IMG/VR virus record: IMGVR_UViG_3300000553_000110
Span: 1-38,795 of that record
DNA: 38,795 nt
Source of the DNA: a virus
Reading direction: 5' to 3' (one strand)
Part shown: positions 242 to 33,885 of the stretch, piece after piece
Position numbering within the stretch: position 1 is the stretch's first letter
Layout of the letters: each line of letters starts with the position of its first letter
Translations under genes and position numbers: made by a program
Notes under the pieces: generated by a model
What the model was told of the DNA's origin: nothing
The model's database searches: none
What the model saw: the letters and a program-made list of their open reading frames with translations, nothing else

Positions 242-871
242 ATGATTGAAGATGTTATTTTTTCACATCTACTACACAATGAAGACTATACTAGAAAAGT
301 TATTCCATTTCTTAAATCAGAATATTTTCAATCTAGAGTCAATAAAATATTGTTTGAGCTAATCAATAACTATATTACAGACTACAATAGAATCCCCACC
401 AAAGAGATTCTGGCCACTAGAATTAATTCCCTAGATAACCTGTCAGAAAATGAATTTCAGTCTTCCACGAGCTTCCTGCAGACACTAAAAGCAGATTCCA
501 ACACAAGTCTAGATTGGCTTGTCGATGAGACAGAAAACTTTTGTCAAGAACGCGCAGTCTATAATGCTATCATGGATTCAATTAAGATCATTGACAAAAA
601 AGATCCAAAAAGAAATAAAGGATCAATTCCGGAAATTCTACAAGAAGCGTTAGCAGTTTCTTTTGATACTAATATTGGACACGACTTCATTGGAGATGCA
701 GATGCTCGATTTGATTTTTATCATCATAAGGAAGAAAAACTAGAGTTTGATTTAGAATACTTTAACGCAATCACTAAAGGTGGTATTTCTAAAAAGACTC
801 TTTCATGTATCTTGGCATCATGCGTGCATCCAGACACTAAGGTAAAGATTAGATACCGTAAGATCGCTTAA
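242..871 (+). CDS. 41: gp41-like replicative DNA helicase, N-terminal half fused to a 16-residue N-intein
   Basis: Residues 1-193 match the N-terminal part of T4 gp41, the DnaB-family hexameric helicase of the phage replisome, ending in a segment (FNAITKGG...LSCILAS) that aligns with the start of the T4 P-loop. Residue C194 begins an intein N-block (CVHPDTKVKIRYRKIA) which is cut by TAA after only 16 residues. The P-loop is completed in the gene at 1703-2950, so this protein cannot work unless it is trans-spliced to that partner. GGAG at 231-234 lies 7 nt before the ATG. The stop overlaps the stop of the opposing HNH gene in the palindrome TTAA (868-871). The two exteins together give 477 residues, against 475 recalled for T4 gp41. 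Confidence 0.9.
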   Translation: MIEDVIFSHLLHNEDYTRKVIPFLKSEYFQSRVNKILFELINNYITDYNRIPTKEILATRINSLDNLSENEFQSSTSFLQTLKADSNTSLDWLVDETENFCQERAVYNAIMDSIKIIDKKDPKRNKGSIPEILQEALAVSFDTNIGHDFIGDADARFDFYHHKEEKLEFDLEYFNAITKGGISKKTLSCILASCVHPDTKVKIRYRKIA

Positions 872-1578
872 ATATAAGTTCTTTTACCGTTTACCATTAA
901 AAGCCTTTTGCCTTTTCTTTCGGTAGATGAACCTTTTTTCTTATTAGTACCAGAACCAAGTTTCCATCCGTCTACTAGATAATTTTCTATTTCGGATGGA
1001 AACACCCGAATTCTTTTTCTATCTTTATTCATCCATTTTTTGCCGGTATGCGATTGACCACCTAGACTGCACCATTCTGATTTATATTGTGGATCATGCA
1101 GGCCGGTTTTTTTCTCATATGATATTTTGCCACCAATAGAACCACCCATTGATGCACGTTTTTTTCTGCCTTCTTCTGTAGACCACCAATAGAATGAATT
1201 TGTATCATCAGATTGTTTTTGTGATTCTAGTCCTTTGGTTGACCATTCTAATTTAGTCTCTTTAGTATGCTTGTCAGAATGAAATCCTATACCATTATCT
1301 CTACAGAAAAATCCAATAAGTTTTCTTTGTGCAACAGACAGTTCTGCTCCAAGCATATGCATAGCTCTTAAGTCATTTGGATTTTTATATATCTTCCATA
1401 AAAGGAAATGTGCTAGCACGTGCTCTCTTACTGTAAGATATGTCAAGTTTGTTTGTTCATCTGTACCGCCCATATGTTTGGGTACAATATGGTGTTTATG
1501 TAGTCCAGAACCTGATTTATATTCAGATTTTAGTTTACTTTTAGATGAACATAGGTTATAATAGATAGATAAGTACAC
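868..1578 (-). CDS. HNH homing endonuclease lodged between the two halves of gene 41
   Basis: This 236-residue protein carries an HNH nuclease motif near the N-terminus: HKHHIVPKHMGG (H29, H30), N44 in TNLTYL, and H53/H57 in REHVLAH. The C-terminal segment KWMNKDRKRIRVFPSEIE followed by WKLG resembles the NUMOD-type DNA-binding modules of phage homing endonucleases. Translation probably starts at GTG 1578, with GGAG 8 nt upstream. It runs antisense to gene 41, converging on the N-half (shared TTAA at the stops) and diverging from the C-half. The inferred role is to cleave intein-free gene 41 alleles and spread the intein/endonuclease insertion. A CATAAATA box at 1644-1651, one base from the T4 late consensus, may drive it. 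Confidence 0.85.
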   Translation of the reverse strand: MYLSIYYNLCSSKSKLKSEYKSGSGLHKHHIVPKHMGGTDEQTNLTYLTVREHVLAHFLLWKIYKNPNDLRAMHMLGAELSVAQRKLIGFFCRDNGIGFHSDKHTKETKLEWSTKGLESQKQSDDTNSFYWWSTEEGRKKRASMGGSIGGKISYEKKTGLHDPQYKSEWCSLGGQSHTGKKWMNKDRKRIRVFPSEIENYLVDGWKLGSGTNKKKGSSTERKGKRLLMVNGKRTYI

Positions 1579-1702
1579 TGCTGTTGCTCCATATTAGTAA
1601 TAGAGTAGGTGGGATTCTGGGGAGTCTCCGCGACCTACACTTATATTTATGCTTAAATAATTTTTCAGATTTTGTTATTTTTATATTTTATAAGGATTTG
1701 AT

Positions 1703-2950
1703 ATGATCGAGTGGATTGAAAAAGAAGTAAAGATTAGTCAACTAAAGAACCTTCTTGCTAAAGGCCATGAAATTGAAGTTACTTCACCTGATGGATGGGT
1801 AGGAGTAAACTATTATATTGAAAAGGGAACATTTGAAGAATATGTTCTAGTTACAGAAAATGGATATTCTGTTTCTTGCAATAAAGGACACTTATTCAAA
1901 AGTAGTCTTGGTTGGTATTCTGCTGAAACCATTCTTTCTATGCAAGAACCTACGGGTCATGCTATGTCTTTCAATACCGAGACTGGATGGTCTAAAGGAT
2001 ATATTGCAAAGACCGGTAAGACTGTTCCTATTGTTGATATCAATGTAGATCATGTGAACCATCGATACTTTACAAATGGTATTGAATCACATAATACGGG
2101 TGTCGGTAAAACCATGTTCATGACGCATAATGCTGCACATCATCTATCGATTGGAAAAAATGTTCTTTATATTACCATGGAAATGTCAGAAGAACGAATT
2201 GCAGAAAGAATTGATGCTAATCTGATGAATATCACTATTGATGATCTAAAGGAACTTTCTAAAGATTCTTTTGATAAGAAGATCAATCGAATCAAAAGTA
2301 AAACTCCGGGTAAATTAATTATTAAGGAATATCCAACTTCATCAGCAGGATCAGCACACTTTCGGCATCTTATTCAAGAACTTAAGATTAAAAAGAATTT
2401 TAAACCCGATATCATTTATATCGACTATTTGAATATTTGTGCGTCTACTCGAATGAAGATGGGTAATGGAGTTAATTCTTATCAATACATCAAGAGCATT
2501 GCAGAAGAACTTCGTGGCCTTGCAGTAGAGTTTGATCTACCTATTATTACAGCCACTCAAAGCAATAGAGATGGTTATAATTCATCTGATATTGGACTTG
2601 ATAATACGTCGGAATCTTTTGGTCTACCAGCAACCGTTGATTTAATGTTTGCTCTTATCTCTACAGAAGAGCTGGAAGATTTAAATCAAATCATGGTGAA
2701 GCAGTTAAAGAACCGCTATGGAGACATTAACGAAAACAAAAGATTTGTTATCGGAGTCAATAGAGCAAAGATGAGGTTTTATGATGTCGAGCAATCTGCT
2801 CAAGACGATATTCTAGAAGGACCTAAATATTCAGCAAAGCCAGTAATGGATAATAGCGACTTTGGAAAAAGATATGATGAAGAAGAGAGTATGCGGTTTA
2901 TGACAAAGAAAGCCGGAAGAAAAGACTTTAGTAAATTGCAATTGTCATGA
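1703..2950 (+). CDS. 41: C-intein (131 aa) fused to the C-terminal helicase half of gp41
   Basis: Residues 1-131 form an intein C-fragment with a block-B-like SCNKGHLF and the C-terminal splice signal NGIESHN; the extein begins at T132. From T132 (codon 2096) the protein is gp41-like: TGVGKT completes the Walker A, NVLYITMEMSEE follows, IIYIDYLNIC is Walker B, and then come TATQSNRDG and GLPATVDLM. Joined to the N-half, the P-loop reads ASTGVGKT, the same length as AGVNVGKS in T4. AAGG lies 8 nt before the ATG. The C-intein is far longer than those of canonical split inteins because the split is next to the N-terminus. Trans-splicing is inferred from the intact Cys1, His-Asn and Thr+1. Confidence 0.9.
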   Translation: MIEWIEKEVKISQLKNLLAKGHEIEVTSPDGWVGVNYYIEKGTFEEYVLVTENGYSVSCNKGHLFKSSLGWYSAETILSMQEPTGHAMSFNTETGWSKGYIAKTGKTVPIVDINVDHVNHRYFTNGIESHNTGVGKTMFMTHNAAHHLSIGKNVLYITMEMSEERIAERIDANLMNITIDDLKELSKDSFDKKINRIKSKTPGKLIIKEYPTSSAGSAHFRHLIQELKIKKNFKPDIIYIDYLNICASTRMKMGNGVNSYQYIKSIAEELRGLAVEFDLPIITATQSNRDGYNSSDIGLDNTSESFGLPATVDLMFALISTEELEDLNQIMVKQLKNRYGDINENKRFVIGVNRAKMRFYDVEQSAQDDILEGPKYSAKPVMDNSDFGKRYDEEESMRFMTKKAGRKDFSKLQLS

Positions 2951-4382: not shown

Positions 4383-4509
4383 TTAATTATCTATTGCCCA
4401 TTATGCCTGATTCTCATGAGCCACGTATACGTAGCCCTCACCGGGCATTCAGCCTCGCAAAAGGTCTAGACCCGAAAGCAGATCATTCGTCATTCTCCAA
4501 GGCTCAGGC

Positions 4510-4689
4510 TCACCCCTGGGCCGTTTCTGTTAGGGCCTCATCGTCGTACCATTCAGCGTCACAGACGGGACACCGCCAATAATCGGCGCCTGCCGGAACC
4601 TTGTCGCCATCGCCGCAGCCGTAGCAGGGTTCGGGGTCGTCATCTTCAAAATCGGCGGCGTCCGTGGGGCTTCGGGGATCGTGGCTCAT
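4510..4689 (-). CDS. small zinc-ribbon protein
   Basis: 59 residues. A four-cysteine ribbon (CYGC at C22/C25 and CPVC at C40/C43, 14 residues apart) follows a strongly acidic N-terminus (FEDDDPEP). Such ribbons bind one zinc and often mediate nucleic-acid or protein contacts; the partner here is unknown. The start MSHDPRS is chosen because GGAGGAG lies 5 nt before it and because ATGA overlaps the stop of the upstream gene. The gene is GC-rich, unlike the AT-rich phage core, and belongs to an apparently acquired block with the gene at 4686-4931. The C-terminus ends 128 bp before the tRNA-Asn. Confidence 0.75.
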   Translation of the reverse strand: MSHDPRSPTDAADFEDDDPEPCYGCGDGDKVPAGADYWRCPVCDAEWYDDEALTETAQG

Positions 4690-4931
4690 GTGTTCTCCTC
4701 CCCCTGTGGGGGGAGGTTGAGCTTGTCGGCCTCGTCTCTCCGCCTGATCTCCCAACCTGAGGAGACCATTTCTTCAAGGCCAGCACGCGCGCGGCCAAAG
4801 AAGATTGGCCAATTATCGTTGACGTGCGCCTCGATCTCCTCGGGCGTGCGGCCTGGGCGGCTCACGTCAGACCAGAACCGGCAAAGCCCCCTCGCCGCAG
4901 TCTCTATCGCCTCGGGGTCAAGAGGGGTCAT
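4686..4931 (-). CDS. GC-rich accessory gene, function unknown
   Basis: 81 residues from ATG 4931 (MTPLDPEAIETAARGLCRFW); a GTG at 4940 could also serve. AAGGCG lies about 10 nt before the ATG. The sequence is soluble and rich in Ala, Glu and Arg, with an Arg/Glu-rich end (WEIRRRDEADKLNLPPQGEE). The form DPEAIETAARxLCxxxG/W is common in small uncharacterised phage and proteobacterial proteins, but no function is known to me. It is coupled to the zinc-ribbon gene by a 4-nt ATGA overlap. High GC sets it apart from the surrounding genome and suggests recent transfer. Confidence 0.65.
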   Translation of the reverse strand: MTPLDPEAIETAARGLCRFWSDVSRPGRTPEEIEAHVNDNWPIFFGRARAGLEEMVSSGWEIRRRDEADKLNLPPQGEENT

Positions 4932-5055
4932 GGGGGACACGCCTTTTCATCGGGAAACAGCAGCGTTTTGAGGCCCGGCAATATTGCCGGGATTGATCCT
5001 TATCACCGCGCGCGTCGGGGCAGGAGGTCGTTGGTCGTCATGCTGGGTCCTTGCA
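4932..5055 (-). other. GC-rich interval with a palindrome and a decayed reading frame
   Basis: No intact gene. CCCGGCAATATTGCCGGG at 4974-4991 is a perfect 18-bp palindrome with no T-run after it. The minus frame from ATG 5041 reads MTTNDLLPRRAR, two stops, then PGLKTLLFPDEKACPP ending in a TGA that overlaps the ATG at 4931 (ATGA). That overlap is typical of a real gene end, so this may be the remnant of a small coupled gene broken by mutation. Confidence 0.35.
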
Positions 5056-5217
5056 AGACCCAGACCAAGACCCAGACCCAGACCAAGACCTAGACCTAGA
5101 CCCAGACCCAGACCCAGACCAAGACCCAGACCCAGACCAAGACCTAGACCTAGACCCAGACCCAGACCCAGACCAAGACCTAGACCTAGACCCAGACCAA
5201 GACTCAGACCAAGACCT
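5056..5217. repeat. G-rich hexamer array 1 (about 27 units)
   Basis: A tandem array of GACCCA, GACCAA and GACCTA hexamers on the plus strand (TGGGTC, TTGGTC, TAGGTC on the minus strand). It lies immediately 3' of the gene at 5238-5495 on its coding strand. All six frames are open because no unit makes a stop, which creates long spurious frames (PR-, DPDQ- and SWSG-type repeats). The flank TATATTTTTGCTTAAGG and following bases up to 5240 is shared with array 2. Confidence 0.95.
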
Positions 5218-5237
5218 ATATTTTTGCTTAAGGCCCC

Positions 5238-5495
5238 TCACTTGAGAAGGCCAAAGCTTTCAATGGCATTGATTTGTACATACCAAACACCGGGAAGCGA
5301 TTGAGCATCCTTCCAAGTCTTGGTGTTTAGTTCACCGGTTTCATAGACAATCTTAGCACCATCCAGCTTTACACATGTATCATTCACACCAACAAGCTTA
5401 CCGGTATAAATGTAATTCATGCAAAACAGTGTCACATTTTGCCCCATGAGAGCCATGAGACCTTCTTCTTCGGTAGCTTCTACCAATACCTTCAT
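5238..5495 (-). CDS. conserved small phage protein, probable beta-barrel fold
   Basis: 85 residues. The core (LMGQNVTLFCMNYIYTGKL, then LDGAKIVYETGEL, then WYVQINAIESFG) is a pattern I recall from many unrelated phages. The strand-rich VTLFC...YTGKLVGVND...VKLDGAKIVYE layout suggests a small SH3/Sm-like barrel, but this is inference and no biochemical role is known to me. AAAGGAAC lies about 7 nt before ATG 5495. Its promoter (5528-5555) overlaps the end of the SWIM gene upstream. The stop is followed at once by TGAGGGGCCTTAAGC and the G-rich hexamer array, which would form its 3' UTR. Confidence 0.8.
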   Translation of the reverse strand: MKVLVEATEEEGLMALMGQNVTLFCMNYIYTGKLVGVNDTCVKLDGAKIVYETGELNTKTWKDAQSLPGVWYVQINAIESFGLLK

Positions 5496-5527
5496 GATTT
5501 AGTTCCTTTTTGATTGATGATAGTGAT

Positions 5528-5555
5528 ATAATATCACAGAGTTAATTAATGTCAA
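5528..5555 (-). promoter_or_regulatory. early-type promoter, variant -10
   Basis: TTGACA - 16 nt - TATTAT, with TTAATT following the -35 as in all the other copies. The stop codon of the SWIM gene (TGA, 5552-5554) is inside TTGACA. It drives 5238-5495. Confidence 0.8.
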
Positions 5556-5773
5556 ACCGCCAATAGCTTCTCACCGACGATTTTAATGTGCTTACATTTG
5601 CCATGCCTAAAGAAGCCTTGGCATGTACACGTAAAGCCCATAGACTCTAGGGTGATATCATATGTCTCAGAGCCTCTAGATGAGGCTACAGGCCATATAG
5701 TTCCTATGAACCAATGGTTCCTATGGTTGATACCATCGATGGCCACTGGGCGCTTTTTATAGCGGTTAGGCAT
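5552..5773 (-). CDS. small SWIM-type zinc-finger protein
   Basis: 73 residues. The C-terminal half has the SWIM signature CxCx(8)CxH: C49 and C51 in FTCTCQGFF, C60 and H62 in HGKCKHI. SWIM domains bind zinc and are thought to contact DNA or proteins; they occur in bacterial SWI2/SNF2 ATPases and plant transposase-like proteins. Here the domain stands almost alone after a basic N-terminus (PNRYKKRPVAI), so it is probably a small adaptor or nucleic-acid-binding protein. Only a weak GAAAG precedes ATG 5773, and upstream lies hexamer array 2 rather than the usual promoter, as though the control region had been displaced. The TGA is shared with the next promoter. Confidence 0.8.
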   Translation of the reverse strand: MPNRYKKRPVAIDGINHRNHWFIGTIWPVASSRGSETYDITLESMGFTCTCQGFFRHGKCKHIKIVGEKLLAV

Positions 5774-5796
5774 GACACTTTCAATTACGATCTTTT

Positions 5797-5927
5797 ACCC
5801 AGACCCAGACCCAGACCAAGACCTAGACCCAGACCAAGACCTAGACCTAAACCCAGACCAAGACCAAGACCAAGACCCAGACCAAGACCTAGACCCAGAC
5901 CAAGACCCAGACCCAGACCAAGACCTA
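5797..5927. repeat. G-rich hexamer array 2 (about 22 units)
   Basis: Same hexamer family and same downstream flank (to about 5949) as array 1, about 740 bp away, in the same orientation. It lies between the SWIM gene start and the end of the gene at 5961. The minus strand carries runs such as TCTGGGTCTGGGTCT with potential to stack G-tracts. Confidence 0.95.
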
Positions 5928-5960
5928 TATTTTTGCTTAAGGCCCCTCATCTAAGGCTCC

Positions 5961-6152
5961 TCACGCGATGCTCTGAGCATCAAACCAGCCAGACCGCCAA
6001 AGGACAAAAGAAACAGGATGATCATCCGGATTAAAGGGATTATCTTCCAGACTATTGTCGGCCTGATATGCGACAAAGCCACTGTCATAAATGGCTCCTT
6101 GTTCCTCATCGCTCAGGATGCGCGTGGAGTCAATAGTGGAAAAATCAGTCAT
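5961..6152 (-). CDS. hypothetical protein (63 aa)
   Basis: Starts MTDFSTIDSTRILSDEE at ATG 6152 with GAAAGGAAAC 5 nt upstream; this start is favoured over ATGs further up. The product is acidic and soluble, with GAIYDSGFVAYQADNSLEDNPFNPDDHP and a C-terminal FVLWRSGWFDAQ. The layout DNPFNPxxxP...LWxxGWxDA is a pattern seen in small phage proteins that contain a ribosome-modulation-factor-like GW motif, but I cannot assign a role. The start overlaps the stop of the upstream gene in ATGACTGA, so the two form a coupled pair under the promoter at 6394-6421. After the stop, the 3' flank shared with array 1 leads into hexamer array 2. Confidence 0.7.
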   Translation of the reverse strand: MTDFSTIDSTRILSDEEQGAIYDSGFVAYQADNSLEDNPFNPDDHPVSFVLWRSGWFDAQSIA

Positions 6153-6363
6153 TTTGTTTCCTTTCATGCGATTCATTCAGGGCTTTGATGTATTCCGCAA
6201 CTTCCGGGAATTTATACGCCAGGTGTTCGATATTGCCTTTGAGAGCACCAATAATATAGTACGGCCGGTACTTGGAGTCGGGGAAGGAGTCGGTGAAATA
6301 TACGTAGGATTGCCGCTCGATCCGTTCGAAAAGCCGTTCGACTTCTGATGTGCTAGTGGTCAT
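6145..6363 (-). CDS. hypothetical protein (72 aa)
   Basis: Translation most likely starts at the second of two ATGs (6363, MTTSTSEVERLFERIE), because AGGA lies 7-8 nt before it and only 1-2 nt before the first (6369). The protein has an amphipathic N-terminal helix, a central YVYFTDSFPDSKYRPYYI, and a helical end (GNIEHLAYKFPEVAEYIKAL). No family recognised. It is the first gene of a coupled pair with 5961-6152 (overlap ATGACTGA) and is directly preceded by an early promoter. Confidence 0.7.
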   Translation of the reverse strand: MTTSTSEVERLFERIERQSYVYFTDSFPDSKYRPYYIIGALKGNIEHLAYKFPEVAEYIKALNESHERKQND

Positions 6364-6393
6364 GTTCATTTCCTGTTTGCTTTTGATATATCC

Positions 6394-6421
6394 ATTATAT
6401 CAAGGGTTCAATTAATGTCAA
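6394..6421 (-). promoter_or_regulatory. early-type promoter
   Basis: TTGACATTAATT...TATAATGG with 16 nt between hexamers and an extended -10 (TGATATAAT). The TGA stop of the gene upstream (6418-6420) lies within TTGACA. Drives 6145-6363 and 5961-6152. Confidence 0.9.
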
Positions 6422-6585
6422 CCGCGTTCCTGGATCCAGACTGACCAACCAGTCTTTTCACTCACCTCATACGCGTAGCGCTCGGCATCGATCCAGTGAG
6501 CGAAGGTTGCCAGACACTCGTCTATCGTCTCGCCGGCACGGTAAAAAGTCCGCATCGCGCGATAGGGGGGCTTGGTCATGGTCAT
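6418..6585 (-). CDS. small hypothetical protein (55 aa)
   Basis: A short frame between two promoter copies, starting MTMTKPPYRAMRTFYRAG (ATG 6585; ATG 6591 is also in frame but only 1-2 nt from the AGGA). It reads through ETIDECLATFAHWIDAERYAY and ends WIQERG with the TGA that forms part of the next promoter. The spacing, shared 5' leader (AAACAGGAAATGAACATG) and stop position match its neighbours exactly, which makes it convincing despite the size. Alpha-helical and soluble; function unknown. Moderately GC-rich. Confidence 0.65.
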   Translation of the reverse strand: MTMTKPPYRAMRTFYRAGETIDECLATFAHWIDAERYAYEVSEKTGWSVWIQERG

Positions 6586-6615
6586 GTTCATTTCCTGTTT
6601 GCTTTTGATATATCC

Positions 6616-6643
6616 ATTATATCAAGGGTTCAATTAATGTCAA
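6616..6643 (-). promoter_or_regulatory. early-type promoter
   Basis: TTGACA - 16 nt - TATAAT with the common flanks. A 33-codon frame upstream (6640-6741) stops inside TTGACA. Drives 6418-6585. Confidence 0.9.
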
Positions 6644-6741
6644 CCAGCCCTATGCGTTTTTTCAGCCCATAGCCCAGATATATCAATGCCCCCAAAAGCG
6701 GCTGCTAGGGGGGGTGTTGGCAGTGGATAAAGTTCAAGCAT
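6640..6741 (-). CDS. doubtful small ORF ending in a promoter
   Basis: A 33-residue frame (MLELYPLPTPPLAAAFGG and onwards) whose TGA is inside the TTGACA of the next promoter, the same arrangement as its proven neighbours. There is no ribosome site, so it may be the 3' remnant of a gene that lost its start. Confidence 0.25.
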   Translation of the reverse strand: MLELYPLPTPPLAAAFGGIDISGLWAEKTHRAG

Positions 6742-7051
6742 GAACCAATGACATTGGCTCGAATTATTTCAAAGACCTTTGGACCGTATCTCCGACTATA
6801 TCTGCGCCTACGTTTACACCGGGGAAAGGATCGATTCCCTCTTGCGTTGGCTTATCCATTAATTTGGCGCCGCCTCTTTTAGGTGTTTAGTCCTGAGCTT
6901 TTGAATTTTAGTTGGGCTCATCCTTCATCTTTATGCCCTCCTCATCCAGCGATCCAATACACGTATTGGCCAGATTCTTGGTGCAGATGGTTCTGAACCT
7001 TTCCTAATTCATCGTCTCAATACTATTTATAAAACTTTTAATCTTTATAAA
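6742..7051 (-). other. interval without a convincing gene
   Basis: About 310 bp. The best candidate is a 31-codon minus frame at 6764-6859 (MDKPTQEGIDPFPGVNVG) whose ATG overlaps the stop of a 20-codon frame (TAATG); neither has clear support. A 13-bp palindrome CCAATGACATTGG lies at 6745-6757. The stretch may be a decayed gene cluster or an unprocessed tRNA trailer. Confidence 0.4.
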
Positions 7052-7128
7052 TGGTAGCCACAGTCGGATTCGAACCGACACTTTACAGATTTTAAGTCTG
7101 TCTCCTCTGCCGGTTGGGATATGTGGCC
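7052..7128 (-). tRNA. tRNA-Leu (TAA), short variable loop
   Basis: A 77-nt cloverleaf: acceptor GGCCACA/TGTGGCT, anticodon arm ACAGA-CTTAAAA-TCTGT giving anticodon TAA (reads UUA), T arm GTCGG-TTCGAAT-CCGAC, discriminator A and encoded CCA. The variable loop is only AAAGT, unlike the long class II arm of bacterial tRNA-Leu; the D-arm TATCCCAACCGGCAGAGGA is of a type I recall from other phage Leu tRNAs. Confidence 0.9.
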
Positions 7129-7176
7129 TTGATTTTCTTTTTAATAGCTATTTCCCGGGCTTTTAACCATGGCTGG

Positions 7177-7194
7177 AGACTATCCGGATAGTCT
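7177..7194. other. 18-bp perfect palindrome
   Basis: AGACTATCCGGATAGTCT lies between the end of the small membrane-protein gene (7213) and the tRNA-Leu. It could form a hairpin in the transcript but has no T-run, so it may protect or separate the tRNA transcript rather than terminate it. Confidence 0.5.
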
Positions 7195-7212
7195 AGCTAT
7201 AGTTACCTACCG

Positions 7213-7308
7213 CTAATGGCCAGAAAGGACACAGATACCCACCAGAAGAGTGCCTAAAGCACCAATCAAAACCACGGCTTCGATGGCCGCTCGAAATAGT
7301 CTAGTCAT
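7213..7308 (-). CDS. single-span membrane micropeptide (31 aa)
   Basis: MTRLFRAAIEAVVLIGALGT begins a 31-residue product with a short basic head followed by about 20 hydrophobic residues (AVVLIGALGTLLVGICVLSG), a single transmembrane segment with N-in orientation by the positive-inside rule. ATG 7308 overlaps the stop of the ArfA-like gene by 4 nt (ATGA), so it is the second gene of a coupled pair under the promoter at 7439-7466. Phage membrane micropeptides often modify host membrane functions or lysis, but nothing here fixes the role. Confidence 0.6.
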   Translation of the reverse strand: MTRLFRAAIEAVVLIGALGTLLVGICVLSGH

Positions 7309-7406
7309 TGTTTACCTTTGCGGCTATAGGATCCTTTGCCCTTCTTGGGCTTGACCACTGAGGATCGGTTGAACTTCCAGGCATTCTTCGCGATTGGATT
7401 GCGCAT
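7305..7406 (-). CDS. ArfA-like alternative ribosome-rescue peptide (33 aa)
   Basis: The product begins MRNPIAKNAWKFN and ends VVKPKKGKGSYSRKGKQ. The tail matches the ArfA core KKGKGSYMRKGKH as I recall it from E. coli, the basic segment that enters the empty mRNA channel of stalled ribosomes and helps recruit RF2. ArfA rescues non-stop complexes when tmRNA fails. ATG 7406 is preferred over in-frame ATG 7415 because AGGG lies 9 nt before it, as in the sister leader at 7995. The peptide is short and very basic and has its own early promoter, consistent with keeping host ribosomes available early in infection. Family membership rests on this motif alone. Confidence 0.6.
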   Translation of the reverse strand: MRNPIAKNAWKFNRSSVVKPKKGKGSYSRKGKQ

Positions 7407-7438
7407 TTGGTTCATCCCTGTTTGCTTTTGATATATCC

Positions 7439-7466
7439 ATTATATCAGGGGTCGAATTAATGTCAA
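7439..7466 (-). promoter_or_regulatory. early-type promoter
   Basis: TTGACA - 16 nt - TATAAT with the common flanks. Drives the ArfA-like and membrane-peptide pair. Confidence 0.9.
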
Positions 7467-7469
7467 ACA

Positions 7470-7706
7470 TCAATCCGAATCTTTTACCGGCTCATCCTCC
7501 TCGGCATAGTGAGCTTCCAGCTCGTTCCAATCGATGCAGTCCAGGTCCAGCATATCACGAATGAACCCGTTCGTGCCGATCTCATTATCGACGTAGTCCA
7601 GTACTTCAGCCTCGATGGCTCGCGCATCCATTCCTTGCAAGGAATCCTCGAACCACAGGGCCACAAGCCACGTCTCGCGATTGCGCCAACCGTTATAGCC
7701 ACTCAT
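7470..7706 (-). CDS. NGWxNxETW-family phage protein
   Basis: 78 residues. The N-terminus GYNGWRNRETWLVALWFEDS matches a small family widespread in phages (the DUF7249 type, as I recall) whose hallmark is NGWxNxxTWxVALW. The rest is acidic (VLDYVDNEIGTNG, NELEAHYAEEDEP). No function is established to my knowledge; the small acidic character would suit a DNA mimic or host-protein inhibitor, but that is speculation. GGGAAC lies about 9 nt before ATG 7706. Its TGA (7470-7472) is 3 nt before the next promoter, whose leader it abuts. A second long frame in the same DNA (7484-7702) is a shadow. Confidence 0.8.
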   Translation of the reverse strand: MSGYNGWRNRETWLVALWFEDSLQGMDARAIEAEVLDYVDNEIGTNGFIRDMLDLDCIDWNELEAHYAEEDEPVKDSD

Positions 7707-7739
7707 TTTGTTCAGTTCCCGTTTGCTTTTGATAGATCC

Positions 7740-7767
7740 ATTATATCAGGGGTCGAATTAATGTCAA
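7740..7767 (-). promoter_or_regulatory. early-type promoter
   Basis: TTGACA - 16 nt - TATAAT with the common flanks, 34 nt upstream of ATG 7706. Confidence 0.9.
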
Positions 7768-7782
7768 CCCGCCGCGGCCAAA

Positions 7783-7995
7783 TCAATAATCAAATGTAAG
7801 AATATATTCTTCTTCCGGAGTCTGATTCGACCAATACGGGTTCTTGACAATTTCGTAATACACAAGCCAATAAAGACATACGACGCCCATTAGGATGAAG
7901 CCTCCCCAAAGCAGGATATATACGGCCTGGACCATCTGGGCGAGATTGCCAGAAAAAAGCATCGCGACCACTTCCGTGAATATGTTGGCGTGCAT
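7783..7995 (-). CDS. small membrane protein (70 aa)
   Basis: ATG 7995 (MHANIFTEVVAMLF) is chosen because the AGG lies 9 nt upstream, while the in-frame ATG at 8004 is too close. The protein has one long or two short hydrophobic segments (VAMLFSGNLAQMVQAVYILL and GGFILMGVVCLYWLVYYEIV), then a polar tail (KNPYWSNQTPEEEYILTF). It is probably an inner-membrane protein with one or two spans. No homology recognised. The promoter upstream is the class with TTTACG as -35. The TGA at 7783 is 15 nt before the next promoter. Confidence 0.65.
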   Translation of the reverse strand: MHANIFTEVVAMLFSGNLAQMVQAVYILLWGGFILMGVVCLYWLVYYEIVKNPYWSNQTPEEEYILTFDY

Positions 7996-8027
7996 TTGGT
8001 TCATTCCTGTTTGCTTTTGATGATACC

Positions 8028-8055
8028 ATTATATCAGGCAGCGAATTAACGTAAA
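8028..8055 (-). promoter_or_regulatory. early-type promoter, TTTACG class
   Basis: TTTACGTTAATT - TATAATGG, 16 nt between hexamers. Its upstream flank GGTGGACCCA plus the A/T hairpin is the same as at 11994-12050, so the whole boundary module is duplicated. Confidence 0.8.
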
Positions 8056-8092
8056 TGGGTCCACCGCATTTTTTTGAAAAAAATTTGCGCCT

Positions 8093-9028
8093 TTATCGAC
8101 CTATTAATTTATAGGCCGATTTAGAATCGCTAGTAGAATCGCGCTTTAATTGAAGCCGTACAAACTTCTTTCCTTTATGTTTAACAATAATTCCATTTCC
8201 AGAATGCTGTACGGTAAAATGTTCTGGTGAATTGAATTGCTCATTATATTCGGTGCTGGGTTGCACTAAATTATGAGTGTAATTTCCATTTAAACCACCG
8301 GTAGTAAATCGATAGTGAGGAATAATTGTTTCTCTCGCGTGCAAAACATGATTCCTCAAAAAGCCAGACAATTCTTGTGGCTCCATATTACCTAAGACAG
8401 TGGCATATTCACGGGCAGCCATATTCAGGTGCTTTTTATGAATAGCATCTACAGAAGTCTTTATTGCCGGATTGTTTTTTAGAAATTCTTTTCTTTGTGA
8501 TTTATTTGTAAAAGTTCTTAGTTCCGGATACGTATTCTCAATTTCTATTCTTGCGTTTGTCTGATTTGAAACTCCATTGGTTCCTGTATTAGTATCCATT
8601 GTGCCAATGCCGATAGTCGAAACTGGTACTTTTGCATTTCTTTTGTAGGAAACCTTCAAAGATATTCCAGTGTAAGTAGCATTTTCATGCGTAAACATGA
8701 TATCCGACGGATCATCATGTTGAGATGCTTTTATTCCTGTTACCCTTTCGATATCGCCGGGTTTAGAAGTCCACGATACGACTGCAATAGGATTTTTTTG
8801 TGATTCGAATTGCAACTTAATATAAGCAGCAGCGGCGCGGGCCCTATTGTCTATTTGCTCATATTCTTCCGGACTTACACGATCCTTAATCGTATTGTGG
8901 GCTTCTTCTGGAGATTGGCCACTTTTATCAGAGTGCTTTTGCATATGTTCGCCATTTATATAATAGCCAACCAAAAGTTCGTGTAATTTTCCTGCAGCAT
9001 CAATAGCAGCGCCATTTTGTATGGACAT
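8093..9028 (-). CDS. large conserved phage protein, possible nuclease-like core
   Basis: 311 residues. The N-terminus IDAAGKLHELLVGYYINGE, a central WTSKPGDIERVTGIKASQHD, then DPSDIMFTHENATYTGISLK with VSYKRNAKVPVS form a pattern I recall in uncharacterised phage proteins (KPGDIxRxTG...ASDI...GxSLKV). The D-x(10-15)-SLK layout could be a variant PD-(D/E)xK nuclease core, in which Ser replaces the second acid; this is inference. The C-terminal part is basic (VKHKGKKFVRLQLKRD). AAAGGGAAC lies 6 nt before ATG 9028. It stands alone under an early promoter and is the second longest gene in the early accessory block (8-14 kb). Confidence 0.75.
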   Translation of the reverse strand: MSIQNGAAIDAAGKLHELLVGYYINGEHMQKHSDKSGQSPEEAHNTIKDRVSPEEYEQIDNRARAAAAYIKLQFESQKNPIAVVSWTSKPGDIERVTGIKASQHDDPSDIMFTHENATYTGISLKVSYKRNAKVPVSTIGIGTMDTNTGTNGVSNQTNARIEIENTYPELRTFTNKSQRKEFLKNNPAIKTSVDAIHKKHLNMAAREYATVLGNMEPQELSGFLRNHVLHARETIIPHYRFTTGGLNGNYTHNLVQPSTEYNEQFNSPEHFTVQHSGNGIIVKHKGKKFVRLQLKRDSTSDSKSAYKLIGR

Positions 9029-9055
9029 GCCGTTCCCTTTGCTTTTGATATATCC

Positions 9056-9083
9056 ATTATATCAAGGGTCTAATTAATGTCAA
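9056..9083 (-). promoter_or_regulatory. early-type promoter
   Basis: TTGACA - 16 nt - TATAAT, common flanks, 27 nt upstream of ATG 9028. Confidence 0.9.
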
Positions 9084-9103
9084 TCAGCGCCAGCACGTTT
9101 TTT

Positions 9104-9133
9104 CAAAAAAATATCTAACCCCCTACCGGTTAG
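9104..9133 (-). terminator. weak terminator hairpin between cassettes
   Basis: CTAACC-GGTAGGG-GGTTAG followed by ATATTTTTTT, placed after the stop of 9146-9835 and before the next promoter. A near copy with one mismatch is at 9925-9953. Confidence 0.55.
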
Positions 9134-9135
9134 AA

Positions 9136-9149
9136 GGAATTAATGTCAA
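9136..9149 (-). repeat. isolated TTGACATTAATTCC element on a stop codon
   Basis: The first 12 bases are those of the early promoters, but no -10 follows at 16-18 nt. The TGA stop of the gene at 9146 is inside it. Further copies in the same strand are at 9956-9969, 12074-12087, 13400-13413 and 14050-14063. Confidence 0.85.
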
Positions 9150-9835
9150 GCGGCAACTTGCACAACAAACCCGCTTTGGTCGCCGCGAGCCTTGCCCTTA
9201 GCCTTGAGCCCCACCACCACTTGCGCGGGGTCTAGGAAGCGGAGGTCCGTTTCATCGCCGTTAATTACAGGGCGACCGTAGTAACTAGTAGGAAGCCCTC
9301 CGGAAAAGACTACCGCGACATTGGTCGAAGTGCCGATTACTTGTACCGTGTCTTCCTCATTTCCATCAGCACGACTAAAGGTCAAGTGATAATTGTCAGG
9401 AAGCCGCCGGCGATTAGTACGCTTGGTATAGTCGTAAAATTGAATTGACGGAAATACGGACATGATATTGTCAAAACCAGCAACAGGAATACGTTCCCAA
9501 GGAATATCACTAGTGCCATTAAGACGGACTACTGGGATTAGTCCCATCCGATACGCTTTTCTGATCAAAGCACCAATCTCGGTGACTAATTGATCCATGA
9601 ATGCTTCACGATTTTCAAAATAAAATTGAGTCTTATTAATACGCGATTGTTGAACCGTGCTAAAGGCACCACGACCGGCGGTATAGAGGCAAGCTTCGGT
9701 GCAACCTTTGGTGCGCTTGGCGCAAGTCTCATATCCCGACACCTTAGCGGGTGCAAGATACAGGATGCCAGTCAGATAACCGGCTTTTTCACCCTTGACG
9801 GTTTTGGTATCAGCGGAAACGCTAAGGAGCTTCAT
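9146..9835 (-). CDS. conserved phage protein of the DUF7227 type
   Basis: 229 residues from ATG 9835 (MKLLSVSADTKTVKG). The segments GYLTGILYLAPAKVSGYETC, KGCTEACLYTAGRG, SRINKT, VVRLNGTSDIPWE, FYDYTKR, NYHLTFSRA and NGDETDLRFLDP match a distinctive protein family common in phages (DUF7227 as I recall). Three Cys (C38, C45, C49) are conserved in it and could hold a metal or cluster. No activity is established. The ribosome site is weak (GAAAGAAAG). ATG 9865, giving MDISKRK, lies in the promoter -10 and is not a start. The stop is within TTGACATTAATTCC. Confidence 0.8.
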   Translation of the reverse strand: MKLLSVSADTKTVKGEKAGYLTGILYLAPAKVSGYETCAKRTKGCTEACLYTAGRGAFSTVQQSRINKTQFYFENREAFMDQLVTEIGALIRKAYRMGLIPVVRLNGTSDIPWERIPVAGFDNIMSVFPSIQFYDYTKRTNRRRLPDNYHLTFSRADGNEEDTVQVIGTSTNVAVVFSGGLPTSYYGRPVINGDETDLRFLDPAQVVVGLKAKGKARGDQSGFVVQVAA

Positions 9836-9863
9836 TTTTTCTTTCTTTCGTTTTGATATATCC

Positions 9864-9891
9864 ATTATATCAAAGGTCGAATTAATGTCAA
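9864..9891 (-). promoter_or_regulatory. early-type promoter
   Basis: TTGACA - 16 nt - TATAAT; spacer TTAATTCGACCTTTGA. Drives 9146-9835. Confidence 0.9.
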
Positions 9892-9924
9892 CCAGCGCCA
9901 GCTGGTGACCAGCACGTTTTTTTC

Positions 9925-9969
9925 AAAAAAATATCTGACCCCCTACCGGTTAGAAGGAATTAATGTCAA
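9925..9969 (-). other. cassette boundary: isolated TTGACATTAATTCC plus weak hairpin
   Basis: 9956-9969 is TTGACATTAATTCC with the stop of 9966-10241 inside it; 9935-9953 repeats the CTAACCGGTAGGGGGT hairpin with one mismatch, followed by ATATTTTTTT. A 13-bp palindrome GCTGGTGACCAGC lies at 9901-9913. Confidence 0.7.
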
Positions 9970-10241
9970 CCCGCTAGCGGTACGTACAGGCTATCATAAA
10001 CCTTTTTTGTCACCTTATAATAAATGCCTTCCGGAGTAACAACGTTATAACAAGGCTTAGCAAGTTTCAGGTTATATTCTCTTTGTTCACTGTGTGTCAT
10101 ATTATTAAACTTACGACGATTATACTTGAACGAATGATCGGTAATTTTTTTCTTAAGCGTGTTAGACTTCACATGTAGGTCTATAAACTGATCCATAGTC
10201 ATGGGATTGCGATGACCGGTAAAATAGAAAAGTTTGGACAC
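9966..10241 (-). CDS. hypothetical protein (91 aa), GTG start
   Basis: Begins at GTG 10241 (MSKLFYFTGHRNPMTMDQF) with AGGGA about 10 nt upstream. Basic and helical in the middle (KSNTLKKKITDHSFKYNRRK, then MTHSEQREYNLKLA), ending CYNVVTPEGIYYKVTKKVYD, a beta-hairpin-like region. No domain recognised; the basic helix may bind nucleic acid. It is a single-gene cassette: early promoter upstream, and a TGA lying inside TTGACATTAATTCC downstream. Confidence 0.7.
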   Translation of the reverse strand: MSKLFYFTGHRNPMTMDQFIDLHVKSNTLKKKITDHSFKYNRRKFNNMTHSEQREYNLKLAKPCYNVVTPEGIYYKVTKKVYDSLYVPLAG

Positions 10242-10274
10242 GTTCTTGTTTCCCTGTTTGGTTTTGATAGATCC

Positions 10275-10302
10275 ATTATATCAAGGGTTCAATTAATGTC
10301 AA
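10275..10302 (-). promoter_or_regulatory. early-type promoter lying inside the end of the upstream gene
   Basis: TTGACA - 16 nt - TATAAT. The upstream gene reads through the -35 region: its last residues VDIN are encoded by GTTGACATTAAT and its TGA is in AATTGA. Confidence 0.9.
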
Positions 10303-10717
10303 CCACCTCCTGAAGGATTTGATGCTTTCCGTGATCAAAGACTTCCCATTGACCGTCTCGAAACAGATAGCTATAATCTTCTCCGCACTCACCAAATGCT
10401 TCTACATACTCGTCAAATCCACCATCATACAGTTTACCATGCTGATTCTTCTCACCGCGATCACGTCCATAGAACACAGTATAGCGATCAATGCGACTAT
10501 TGAAGCTATGACCAGCTGGGCAGTCAATAGAAGTGTCCAGTACAAAGATGTTTCCGAGAGCAACGAGAGCCTCGACTTGCTCTAGTGTATTATAATGATT
10601 CAACAACGTCTTACCGACACCCTCGTAATAGCCATCATGATGGCAGTATACGCGAGTGATTTGACCGTCTTCGTGTTCGACTGCGATGGTTGCCCAGATG
10701 GTTGAGCGCGTAGGCAT
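10289..10717 (-). CDS. conserved phage protein, function unknown
   Basis: 142 residues from ATG 10717 (MPTRSTIWATIAVEHEDGQI). The layout MPTRSTI...DGxIxxVYCHHDGYYEGVGKTLLNHY, then HSFNSRIDRYTVFYGRDRGE and YSYLFRDGQWEVFDHG, is one I recall from many phages and plasmids as an uncharacterised family. Several His and Asp in YCHHDGYYEG hint at a metal site, without proof. AGGA is about 12 nt upstream. The last four residues are encoded by the -35 region of the next promoter, so the two have been fitted together. Confidence 0.75.
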   Translation of the reverse strand: MPTRSTIWATIAVEHEDGQITRVYCHHDGYYEGVGKTLLNHYNTLEQVEALVALGNIFVLDTSIDCPAGHSFNSRIDRYTVFYGRDRGEKNQHGKLYDGGFDEYVEAFGECGEDYSYLFRDGQWEVFDHGKHQILQEVVDIN

Positions 10718-10751
10718 GTTCGTTCGGTTCCTGTTTGGTTTTGATAGATCC

Positions 10752-10779
10752 ATTATATCAAGGGTCGAATTAATGTCAA
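10752..10779 (-). promoter_or_regulatory. early-type promoter
   Basis: TTGACA - 16 nt - TATAAT. Its upstream flank forms, with an oppositely oriented TTGACATTAATTCC at 10825-10838, a 15-bp inverted repeat. Drives 10289-10717. Confidence 0.9.
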
Positions 10780-10824
10780 CCAGCCCAATCACGTTTTTTT
10801 AAAAACTTTTTTCGCTGCGAAGGG

Positions 10825-11218: not shown

Positions 11219-11965
11219 TTAATCTAGATTTAGCACCTCATTTTGAGCCTTGAGAAATTCAAGAATCAACAAAGTTTCTTTCTTTTTCTTTTCACAATCA
11301 TACGTATTAATATGGTTCATATATTCATCGATTGTCATATTTCTACAACCAGTTTGAATATGAAATAATCCATCAGACATAGGAACATATACAAAAGTAT
11401 ATCCATCTGACCTAATAGACTGAGGGAAAAACTTAGAGACCTGAGCATTGCCAAAGACCCGAGCATTGCCAGATATCCGAGCGTCGCCAAAGACCTGAGC
11501 GTCGCCAAAGACCTGAGCGTCGCCAAAGACCTGAGCGTCGCCAGAGACAATAGCATTGCCAGATATCCAAGCATTGACAGAGACAATAGCATTGCCAGAT
11601 ATCCAAGCATTGACAGAGACAATAGCATTGACAGAGACAATAGCATTGCCAGAGACAATAGCATTGCCAGAGACAATAGCATTGCCAGAGACAATAGCAT
11701 TGCCAGATATCCAAGCATTGACAGAGACAATAGCATTGACAGAGACAATAGCATTGCCAGAGACAATAGCATTGCCAGAGACAATAGCATTGCCAGAGAC
11801 AATAGCATTGCCAGATATCCAAGCGTCGCCTTCTTGAGACAGATTAGCTTCAGATTCAATCCAGCCGCCAAGATCACCAGCCTTGACACCATGATGCTTG
11901 ATATCAATCAAAGCACGAATTTGCGTCAGGCCATTCTGCTTGTTTTTAGTCAATTCATATTTCAT
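11219..11965 (-). CDS. hexapeptide-repeat (beta-helix-like) protein
   Basis: 248 residues. After an N-terminal domain (MKYELTKNKQNGLTQIRALI, HHGVKAGDLGGWIESEANLS) come 22 exact hexapeptide units of the GNAIVS / GDAWIS / GDAQVF type, which should coil into a stacked beta-helix as in other GDAxVxGNA phage and bacterial proteins. A C-terminal domain follows (GYTFVYVPMSDGLFHIQTG, MTIDEYMNHIN). Within the array a six-unit block (four GNAIVS, VNAIVS, VNAWIS) is duplicated. GAAAGGAA is 8 nt before ATG 11965; ATG 11995 lies in the -10 and is rejected. The function of this family is not established; a surface- or scaffold-type role is a guess. Confidence 0.8.
   Translation of the reverse strand: MKYELTKNKQNGLTQIRALIDIKHHGVKAGDLGGWIESEANLSQEGDAWISGNAIVSGNAIVSGNAIVSGNAIVSVNAIVSVNAWISGNAIVSGNAIVSGNAIVSGNAIVSVNAIVSVNAWISGNAIVSVNAWISGNAIVSGDAQVFGDAQVFGDAQVFGDARISGNARVFGNAQVSKFFPQSIRSDGYTFVYVPMSDGLFHIQTGCRNMTIDEYMNHINTYDCEKKKKETLLILEFLKAQNEVLNLD
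11435..11830. repeat. 18-bp tandem repeats (22 units) coding the hexapeptides
   Basis: Units such as AGAGACAATAGCATTGCC on the plus strand, with near-perfect identity in the middle and a duplicated 108-bp super-unit. Because 18 is a multiple of three, all frames stay open, producing long shadow frames on both strands. Confidence 0.95.
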
Positions 11966-11993
11966 ATGGTATTCCTTTCGTTTTGATAGATCC

Positions 11994-12021
11994 ATTATAT
12001 CAGGGGTCGAATTAACGTAAA
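11994..12021 (-). promoter_or_regulatory. early-type promoter, TTTACG class
   Basis: TTTACGTTAATT - TATAATGG, 16 nt between hexamers, followed by the ATCAAAACGAAAGGAA leader. Drives the repeat protein and probably the RHH gene. Confidence 0.85.
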
Positions 12022-15059: not shown

Positions 15060-15821
15060 TTAAGAACGAATAGTCCAGGCATCTGTTCCTAGTTGATTAT
15101 TTTCTAAATACTCACCGGGAATCCAGAAATGACCGCGATCTCCCCAATCAACTCCCCAACTGTTTCTTACTTCATAGTATCTTCGGCCCATTCCTTGAAA
15201 GTTTTCATCGTATCCAATTACGGCTACAGCATGTCCACCTAGACAATTTTCATATTGACTTGGCATTGGTACTACACCTGTTCTGGCTACTGAGTCAGAT
15301 TCAAAAGATTGAAAGATTTGAATCCCTAACATAAATGGATATCCATCAACTAAACATTGTCTATAATCATTGGCGTCGCCATCATCAAGACTAAAATACT
15401 GTGTAATCTTATTAAGAGCGCCTTCTTGTAATTCAATAGGTGGAGGCTGCACAGTAAATTTAGATATATCATATGGCCAATGTTCTTCCAAGCCTATTCC
15501 TTTTGCATTGAGAACTTTTATGGCGTCTCTTAAATAGGCTCCACTATCATGATCTATTGTACCTTCTAATTCTCTTTCCCAATAATAAAGAGCAAGGCGA
15601 GAATAAGGTCCGCCGCCGTGTTCATATGTAAAAATACCTGTGGCGGCATGGGCAGAACAACTGCCTAATTCACCCTGATCATATGGTAATTCTTTAAATC
15701 GATTTCTTAAACTAACCTTTTCAGGAAAAATAGGGTTATCTTCAATAGAACGAACTGCTCTAAATCTAATATCTGTAGGATCTTTAGGATCTTTTAGATA
15801 ACCATATTTTCTTGTAATCAT
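15060..15821 (-). CDS. papain-family (C1) cysteine protease
   Basis: 253 residues with all the landmarks of a mature papain-like enzyme: catalytic C55 in DQGELGSCSAHAATG, the oxyanion Gln Q49, H197 in CLGGHAVAVIGY, and N220 in VRNSWGVDWGDRGHFWIP. There is no signal peptide and only a short N-terminal extension, so it is not an obvious zymogen. It follows the 809-residue virion protein with a one-base TAATG overlap and so is expressed late, with structural genes. It might process virion proteins, act on the host at entry or assist lysis; the sequence does not decide. It is distinct from the gp21 prohead protease. Confidence 0.85.
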   Translation of the reverse strand: MITRKYGYLKDPKDPTDIRFRAVRSIEDNPIFPEKVSLRNRFKELPYDQGELGSCSAHAATGIFTYEHGGGPYSRLALYYWERELEGTIDHDSGAYLRDAIKVLNAKGIGLEEHWPYDISKFTVQPPPIELQEGALNKITQYFSLDDGDANDYRQCLVDGYPFMLGIQIFQSFESDSVARTGVVPMPSQYENCLGGHAVAVIGYDENFQGMGRRYYEVRNSWGVDWGDRGHFWIPGEYLENNQLGTDAWTIRS

Positions 15822-25247: not shown

Positions 25248-25248
25248 A

Positions 25249-25878
25249 TTATATACCCCTCTCAATAAAATCGTAACCTAAGTCTTTCAAAGGTACACCG
25301 ATTGGAATATTGTATTTATTCTTTTTTCTAATAGGTCTATTCAACTTACAATACGTTATAATAGTTGTTGCTGGTATATCAAAAGGTGCGGCTTTACTAG
25401 CAGCAGGGGGAGAATCAAAAGTACCCCAAGGAGTTATGTACCATCCCTTGAAGTTATTATTGTGGATTCCTGTTTGATTAACATGAGGACGTTCACCTCT
25501 CATGTTAATTTTATGAGTTTCAGATTTAGGAACACCTATAAAATATTCTTTTATTGCAAGTGCACCTATAATCTTTGCCTTATTATATTGTAAGGAAGAA
25601 ATTTTATTTTTAGAGTTTGCCATTTTCCATAATGCATAACTAAGTTTTCTTTTAATTTCACCTGAAGTCATTTTAACTAACAATCTATGACATATGAAAT
25701 GTTCTTTGAATGAAAGTTCAACTAGATTATATTCATAATCAGAGCCACCCATACACTTAGGTACAATATGATGATCTTCAGTATAACCACATACGGGTCT
25801 ATTTTTAACGTTGTTTATTATACTAAAATAGATCCGTGTATATTTGTTATCTAAAAACATTTCAAAGTCCCATGCCAT
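25249..25878 (-). CDS. HNH homing endonuclease between gp19 and gp20
   Basis: 209 residues. HNH motif: H36/H37 in EDHHIVPKCMGG, N51 in YEYNLVELS, H60/H64 in KEHFICHRLL. A C-terminal DNA-recognition part contains GWYITPWGTFDSPPAASKAA. Start ATG 25878 or, as in similar proteins, the ATG at 25860 (MFLDNKYTRIYFS); neither has a strong ribosome site. Its last codons (GAG AGG GGT) double as the ribosome site of the portal gene, which begins one base after its stop. Insertion between two essential genes is typical of free-standing phage homing endonucleases, and the nearby portal intein lacks its own nuclease. Confidence 0.85.
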   Translation of the reverse strand: MAWDFEMFLDNKYTRIYFSIINNVKNRPVCGYTEDHHIVPKCMGGSDYEYNLVELSFKEHFICHRLLVKMTSGEIKRKLSYALWKMANSKNKISSLQYNKAKIIGALAIKEYFIGVPKSETHKINMRGERPHVNQTGIHNNNFKGWYITPWGTFDSPPAASKAAPFDIPATTIITYCKLNRPIRKKNKYNIPIGVPLKDLGYDFIERGI

Positions 25879-32992: not shown

Positions 32993-33000
32993 TATTTATA
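32993..33000 (-). promoter_or_regulatory. T4-type late promoter for gp14
   Basis: TATAAATA, 25 nt upstream of ATG 32968, lying across the end of the homing-endonuclease gene (stop 32996-32998). Confidence 0.8.
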
Positions 33001-33799: not shown

Positions 33800-33885
33800 T
33801 TTAAACTCCTTTGAATAATATACTATCTTATACCACATCTAATAGATGTACATTTATTTAGTCATGCAAGACTAAAATGGGTCTT

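What the first reader, a model, noticed from the sequence alone, without database searches (positions are those of the whole stretch)
242..2950. Replicative helicase encoded in two pieces by an ultra-short split intein
Gene 41 is cut inside its P-loop. The N-half ends with a 16-residue intein start (Cys1 to a stop), the C-half begins with a 131-residue intein remainder ending HN/Thr. Canonical split inteins break near the middle of the fold; very short N-inteins of this atypical class, including ones in T4-like helicase genes, have been reported only rarely. The catalytic residues look intact, so an essential replication enzyme depends on protein trans-splicing. A 16-residue N-intein is also at the small end of those known to me.
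Basis: partly seen in the sequence, partly recalled or inferred. Interest (0 to 1): 0.85.

Follow-up and report, generated by a model that had tools for sequence, protein, structure and literature searches.

The report
Phage helicase rejoined by split intein
A T4-like phage carries its replicative helicase gene in two pieces, which a split intein with an unusually short 16-residue front part should splice back into one protein; the kind is known (VidaL), but more than 80 related loci show it as a mobile family built around a homing-nuclease gene lying in the break.

Summary
Window 242-2950 holds a T4-like gp41 helicase interrupted inside Walker A: N-extein plus 16-aa IntN (Cys1, TAA 869-871), an antisense HNH gene (1578-868), then a 131-aa IntC ending His-Asn, and Thr+1 with the rest of the helicase. 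A second contig carries the locus at 100% identity, so the break is probably not an assembly error. IntC matches the atypically split intein VidaL best by sequence and by predicted fold (Z 14.4). Splicing itself was not tested.

It is a new member of a known kind (VidaL, IntN also 16 aa). The news lies in the family. I found 86 distinct split and 15 contiguous relatives at the same helicase site. Usually an HNH gene sits in the break, mostly antisense; in some loci it is decayed or gone. Some IntC are 100% identical at DNA level in helicases only 72-81% identical, which indicates recent horizontal transfer. Contiguous inteins nest within split clades, so breaks have probably healed. The window's HNH leader has a strongly covarying hairpin beside a late-promoter-like site; it recurs before other nuclease genes. 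VidaL itself sits in uvsX, not in the helicase.

The parts
242..820 (+). N-extein: residues 1-193 of the T4-like gp41 replicative helicase, up to the start of Walker A
   Evidence: phrog_19, E 3.5e-39
821..871 (+). IntN: 16 codons CVHPDTKVKIRYRKIA (catalytic Cys1) plus TAA stop at 869-871
   Evidence: same motif in 86 relatives, Cys1, Val2 and Thr6 invariant
868..1578 (-). HNH homing-endonuclease-like gene, 236 aa, GTG start; its stop (TTA on +, 868-870) overlaps the IntN stop in TTAA
   Evidence: (phrog_655, E 4.8e-18)
1600..1643 (.). covarying hairpin in the leader of the HNH gene; stem 1 1605-1610/1633-1638, stem 2 1612-1615/1626-1629
1644..1651 (-). T4-late-promoter-like CATAAATA (consensus TATAAATA, 7 of 8) just upstream of the hairpin, for the HNH gene
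   Evidence: consensus from own knowledge. TATTTAT alone is no more frequent in the window than chance; its recurrence at this place in relatives is the evidence
1703..2095 (+). IntC: 131 aa with block B His63, block F Asp112/His120, block G His130-Asn131
2096..2950 (+). C-extein: Thr+1, rest of Walker A (TGVGKT) and helicase C-terminal domain, 284 aa
   Evidence: DnaB_C, E 3.3e-17; phrog_19, E 3.3e-79

Best explanation
The locus is a T4-like gp41 helicase gene broken by an atypically (S1) split intein with a homing-endonuclease gene in the break. Both halves are made as separate proteins. The 16-residue IntN completes the fold of the 131-residue IntC; Cys1 and Thr+1 serve as the two nucleophiles, Asn131 cyclises, and the two exteins are joined into a 477-residue helicase with an intact Walker A. 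The break puts helicase activity under splicing control, because neither half has a complete nucleotide-binding loop. The antisense HNH gene most likely cuts inteinless helicase alleles at this site, so that IntN, HNH and IntC are copied together into coinfecting phages. Shown here: the anatomy, the fold (predicted), the intact catalytic residues, purifying selection, the empty sites, and horizontal transfer among relatives. Inferred: that splicing happens, that HNH is the nuclease responsible, and when it is expressed.
For: Anatomy and reading frames. Joined IntN+IntC hits VidaL (6vgv/6vgw) at E 2.2e-8. AlphaFold model of IntC, pLDDT 92.4, best solved structure VidaL: Z 14.4, rmsd 2.0 over 121 residues, aligned to VidaL residues 17-141, that is from just after its 16-aa IntN. 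A contiguous relative (L084), pLDDT 96.6, matches VidaL at Z 21.4, rmsd 1.4 over 136; the break in the split relatives falls between its strands 7-13 and 19-24. In 101 distinct relatives Thr+1 and terminal His-Asn are invariant; in 86 split ones Cys1 is invariant. IntN pN/pS 0.22, IntC median dN/dS 0.30, HNH 0.39. Empty sites. Horizontal movement: IntC 100% identical at DNA level with exteins 72-81% identical (L017/L018; L184/L190). Second contig identical across the locus.
Against: No splicing assay, protein or transcript data exist for this phage. Block B lacks the common Thr of TxxH (here NKGH; VidaL AFNH); VidaL is described as fast-splicing, so this need not matter. The HNH Pfam match is below its curated cut-off (19.4 against 21.4 bits), although the PHROG match is clear. 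Whether this particular HNH is active is unknown.
Confidence: 0.93

Rival explanations
1. Genes in pieces without splicing: an HNH insertion split the helicase and the two polypeptides work by non-covalent assembly, as reported for a phage ribonucleotide reductase gene, with the intein sequence a dead remnant.
For: A nuclease gene does lie between the halves, and such a case is known (Friedrich et al. 2007, cited in PMC10448857).
Against: The break lies inside Walker A; all catalytic intein residues are kept in 86 split relatives; IntN (pN/pS 0.22) and IntC (median dN/dS 0.30) are under purifying selection; a plain insertion would not carry a complete HINT domain.
Confidence: 0.04
2. The insertion is removed from RNA: a group I or II intron carrying an HNH gene.
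For: HNH genes are common in phage introns (own knowledge).
Against: The ends of the insertion encode an intein up to the last codon; no Rfam intron matched 600-2200; 15 relatives are one continuous in-frame intein; HNH is antisense here.
Confidence: 0.01
3. Assembly error or broken pseudogene.
For: Metagenomic origin (an IMG/VR virus record, probably a fragment).
Against: A second contig is identical over 7,095 bases; the same architecture recurs in 86 distinct loci; both ORFs are intact.
Confidence: 0.02

Closest known systems
VidaL (PDB 6vgv/6vgw), atypically split intein, IntN 16 aa
   Same: S1 break after the second beta strand; IntN of 16 residues; Cys1; terminal HN; best match by sequence (E 2.2e-8) and fold (Z 14.4); P-loop insertion site; nuclease-like gene in the break in some loci (L074)
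   Different: VidaL IntC is 98-100% identical to loci L071-L074, whose host gene is uvsX (GESG|SGKS, +1 Ser), not the helicase; only about 29% identity; the nuclease-like ORF there is of another kind and on the sense strand
Fractured genes (Dassa et al. 2009): canonically split inteins such as gp41-1 with a nuclease gene in the gap
   Same: Phage helicase host gene for gp41-1 (own knowledge); gene halves separated by a nuclease gene
   Different: Here the break is at S1 (16 + 131 aa), not the canonical site, and the nuclease is HNH and antisense; the paper itself was not held, so its content is from own knowledge
PolB16 OarG, AceL-TerL, GOS-TerL (other atypically split inteins)
   Same: Short IntN (15, 25, 37 aa) and long IntC (PMC10189870, PMC13014065, PMC11766414)
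   Different: Other host genes (PolB, TerL); AceL and GOS TerL break after the first helix (S2); PolB16 uses Ser1/Ser+1
I-TevI of phage T4 (regulation of the nuclease gene)
   Same: Late-promoter-like site and hairpin upstream of the nuclease gene; in other relatives a homing-site-like sequence next to the promoter (PMC2988022)
   Different: HNH, not GIY-YIG; in an intein break, not an intron; autorepression is only a guess here and does not apply to the window, whose leader is of the hairpin type

Membership tests
Intein (HINT domain, class 1) | N-terminal nucleophile Cys/Ser1 | tested here: met
   Cys1 at 821-823, invariant in 86 split relatives
Intein (HINT domain, class 1) | Block B His, block F Asp/His, penultimate His and terminal Asn | tested here: met
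   His63, Asp112, His120, His130, Asn131; His63, Asp112, His130 and Asn131 invariant and His120 at least 90% conserved in A3
Intein (HINT domain, class 1) | +1 Cys/Ser/Thr | tested here: met
   Thr+1, 101 of 101 relatives
Intein (HINT domain, class 1) | HINT fold | tested here: met
   Predicted model; 84 chains at Z 5 or more, the 50 entries listed being inteins, Hedgehog or intein-like domains
Intein (HINT domain, class 1) | Precise insertion; inteinless alleles exist | tested here: met
   Abutting halves in Synechococcus phage S-B64
Intein (HINT domain, class 1) | Splicing activity | not testable with these tools
   Needs co-expression
Atypically split inteins, S1 type (VidaL, PolB16) | IntN of about 15-37 aa and long IntC on separate polypeptides | tested here: met
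   16 + 131 aa; published range 15-37 (PMC13014065)
Atypically split inteins, S1 type (VidaL, PolB16) | Break directly after beta strand 2 | tested here: met
   IntC aligns to VidaL 17-141; break maps between strands 7-13 and 19-24 of the contiguous relative L084
Same allele as VidaL | Same host gene and insertion site | tested here: not met
   VidaL loci are in uvsX; the window's is in the gp41 helicase
Canonically split inteins (gp41-1, Npu DnaE) | Break at the endonuclease insertion site, IntN about 100 aa | tested here: not met
   IntN 16 aa
HNH homing endonucleases | HNH motif and family match | tested here: met
   phrog_655 homing endonuclease, E 4.8e-18; Pfam HNH sub-threshold, E 0.0012
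HNH homing endonucleases | Cleaves the inteinless allele and drives homing | not testable with these tools
   Horizontal transfer of the cassette in relatives is indirect support

The most novel reading that the evidence does not exclude
The split intein and its nuclease gene form one composite mobile element that cycles: nuclease genes of several kinds enter the S1 loop of a contiguous helicase mini-intein and split it, the cassette homes between divergent T4-like phages, the nuclease gene decays or is deleted leaving a split intein with a short gap, and some of these fuse again into contiguous inteins. The nuclease gene is controlled by a dedicated leader: either a covarying hairpin next to a late promoter, or a homing-site-like operator.
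Probability: 0.5. Interest if true: 0.7.

Novelty: new member of a known kind. Interest (0 to 1): 0.5.

Why it matters
The relatives are a ready natural library of ultra-short split inteins (IntN predicted at 14-24 aa) in one host site, useful for protein labelling and for asking what keeps a 16-residue fragment competent. They also let one ask directly how split inteins arise: the set holds contiguous, nuclease-bearing, decaying, nuclease-free and apparently healed states of one intein at one site. And an essential replication enzyme that depends on trans-splicing is a point where phage replication can be controlled.

Tried and rejected
Search of 50,697 phage isolates with IntC: only distant hits at about 30% in uvsX and terminase genes, so no isolate with this helicase intein was found there. 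Single-sequence scan of viral contigs found only the twin contig; a two-sequence profile with VidaL opened the family. Rfam on 600-2200: nothing but one chance-level match. Nucleotide identity between nuclease leaders and the same locus's own helicase junction: only weakly above shuffles, 4 of 40 on the nuclease strand against 3 of 40 on the other; the operator idea therefore rests on the LAGTG codon pattern (11 strict matches on the nuclease strand, none on the other, shuffles 0), which was noticed before it was tested and whose regular expression fixes the non-wobble positions. A first dN/dS script timed out and was rerun smaller. The 2009 fractured-genes paper is not held, the main VidaL papers were met only as references, and no held paper speaks of T4Lh inteins, so what the literature says about helicase inteins of this class could not be checked. 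The IntC tree has few columns and many unresolved forks.

Full report
WHAT IS THERE. The window is part of a T4-like phage genome fragment (gp23 capsid, gp20 portal, T4-type terminase; a uvsX-like gene lies just upstream in the overlapping contig). The N-half and C-half cover the PHROG helicase profile at 162-360 and 362-604, so the insertion removed nothing, and in inteinless phages such as S-B64 the halves abut at the same base. A second IMG/VR contig has the same 7,095 bases without a difference.

INTEIN IDENTITY. IntN plus IntC match VidaL at E 2.2e-8; the C-half reached no Pfam intein model. The AlphaFold model of IntC (pLDDT 92.4) is nearest VidaL: Z 14.4, rmsd 2.0 over 121 residues, starting at VidaL residue 17, the first after its own IntN. 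A contiguous relative, L084, gives a complete HINT model (pLDDT 96.6) with VidaL at Z 21.4; its residues 15/16, where the split relatives break, lie between two strands. All class-1 residues are present.

THE FAMILY. From scans of viral contigs I sorted 101 distinct loci with both halves: 86 split, 15 contiguous, all at the same Walker A position, all with Thr+1 and His-Asn. Distinct means different junction sequences; some are close relatives. IntN is 14 to 24 aa, mostly 16 to 18; five loci (L077, L090, L123, L144, L155) are predicted at 14, under the 15 aa called the shortest characterised (PMC10189870). These lengths are read from the frame. No isolate among 50,697 phage records has this helicase intein, so the hosts are unknown.

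WHAT SITS IN THE BREAK. Of 73 split loci with a gap of 350 bases or more, 64 have the HNH gene antisense and 6 a related HNH gene in sense. L068 has a sense-strand ORF of another kind and L039 yet another; from its motif I read L068 as Vsr-like, but Pfam gave no match, so that is a reading of the sequence only. Thirteen loci have gaps of -4 to 301 bases: the nuclease is gone or a remnant. L132, L142 and L093, with nearly identical inteins, show the series intact (gap 707), remnant (172) and absent (37). VidaL's own locus does the same in uvsX: L074 has a full ORF in the gap, L071 a broken one, L072 and L073 a gap of about 58 bases.

MOVEMENT AND HEALING. L017 and L018 have IntC identical in every base while their exteins are 73-81% identical over the longer stretches compared; L184 and L190 likewise with exteins at 72-74%. 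That is recent horizontal transfer of the intein, in line with homing. In the IntC tree, contiguous L011 lies inside a supported clade of split inteins, L058 inside another, and L141 pairs with split L091. L011 differs from L018 by loss of everything between the end of IntN and the first codon of IntC, the IntC being 98.7% identical. Fusion of a split intein is the simplest reading; the tree counts changes but cannot give direction, and many forks are unresolved.

THE NUCLEASE LEADER. Between HNH and IntC the window has a two-part hairpin (1600-1643) beside a late-promoter-like site. In an alignment of 20 leaders 98% of pair cells are standard pairs, 58 cells have changes on both sides against 15.5 in shuffles, slid controls drop to about 50% or less, and no G-U pair occurs in any cell, which may mean that both strands or single-stranded DNA matter. 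The alignment was made from sequences picked by a hairpin search or by eye, which favours pairing but not the covariation pattern. A covariance model finds the hairpin also before other nuclease-like genes: an HNH-like ORF in L027 and GIY-YIG-like ORFs in L135 and L050 (families read from sequence). Many other relatives lack the hairpin and instead have, on the nuclease strand, a sequence that reads LAGTG or VAGTG in helicase codons across the insertion site; no locus was found with both, and the leader types (hairpin, LAGTG, neither) change at least 10 times on the HNH tree. T4 I-TevI has a homing-site-like operator over its late promoter and represses itself (PMC2988022), so I suggest an operator; a scar of how the gene arrived is the alternative, and the evidence is moderate.

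VERDICT. As a single locus it is a new member of a known kind. Its family gives it more interest than the single locus deserves: common, mobile, and caught in several stages of splitting and apparent healing.

Noticed in passing
window 1600-1643; L027:6165-6202, L135:5225-5264, L050:260-300: Covarying hairpin beside a late-promoter-like site, before nuclease-like genes of different families; every paired cell is Watson-Crick, no G-U. No Rfam family found for the window stretch.
   Followed up: partly
leaders of L049, L057, L062, L102, L133, L149, L185, L191 and others: On the nuclease strand the leader reads LAGTG/VAGTG, the helicase codons over the intein insertion site; not found together with the hairpin. 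Candidate operator.
   Followed up: partly
L011, L058, L141: Contiguous inteins within or beside split clades: apparent re-fusion of split inteins.
   Followed up: partly
L071-L074: IntC is 98-100% identical to crystallised VidaL and the host gene is uvsX, with an intact, broken or absent nuclease-like ORF in the break.
   Followed up: partly
window 23007-25265 (-): Portal gene gp20 carries a contiguous intein (Pfam Intein_splicing, E 2.5e-10) with what looks like a degenerate HNH motif; an HNH ORF of the same PHROG as the helicase one lies directly upstream, 25249-25878.
   Followed up: no
window 32996-33838 (-): Further homing-endonuclease-like ORF with a NUMOD3 motif, between structural genes.
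   Followed up: no
window 6357-10781: Nine copies of a 67-base repeat before small minus-strand genes; in that orientation it contains TTGACA and TATAAT, a sigma-70-like promoter.
   Followed up: no
window 4500-6000: GC-rich stretch (62% at 4501-5000) and two arrays of 12-base repeats at about 5010-5290 and 5761-5985; also in the twin contig.
   Followed up: no
window 15060-15821 (-): Papain-family cysteine protease (Pfam Peptidase_C1, E 1.9e-13), unexpected in a tailed phage.
   Followed up: no
window 11219-11995 (-): ORF with many repeats of the type ISGNAIVSGNAIVSG.
   Followed up: no
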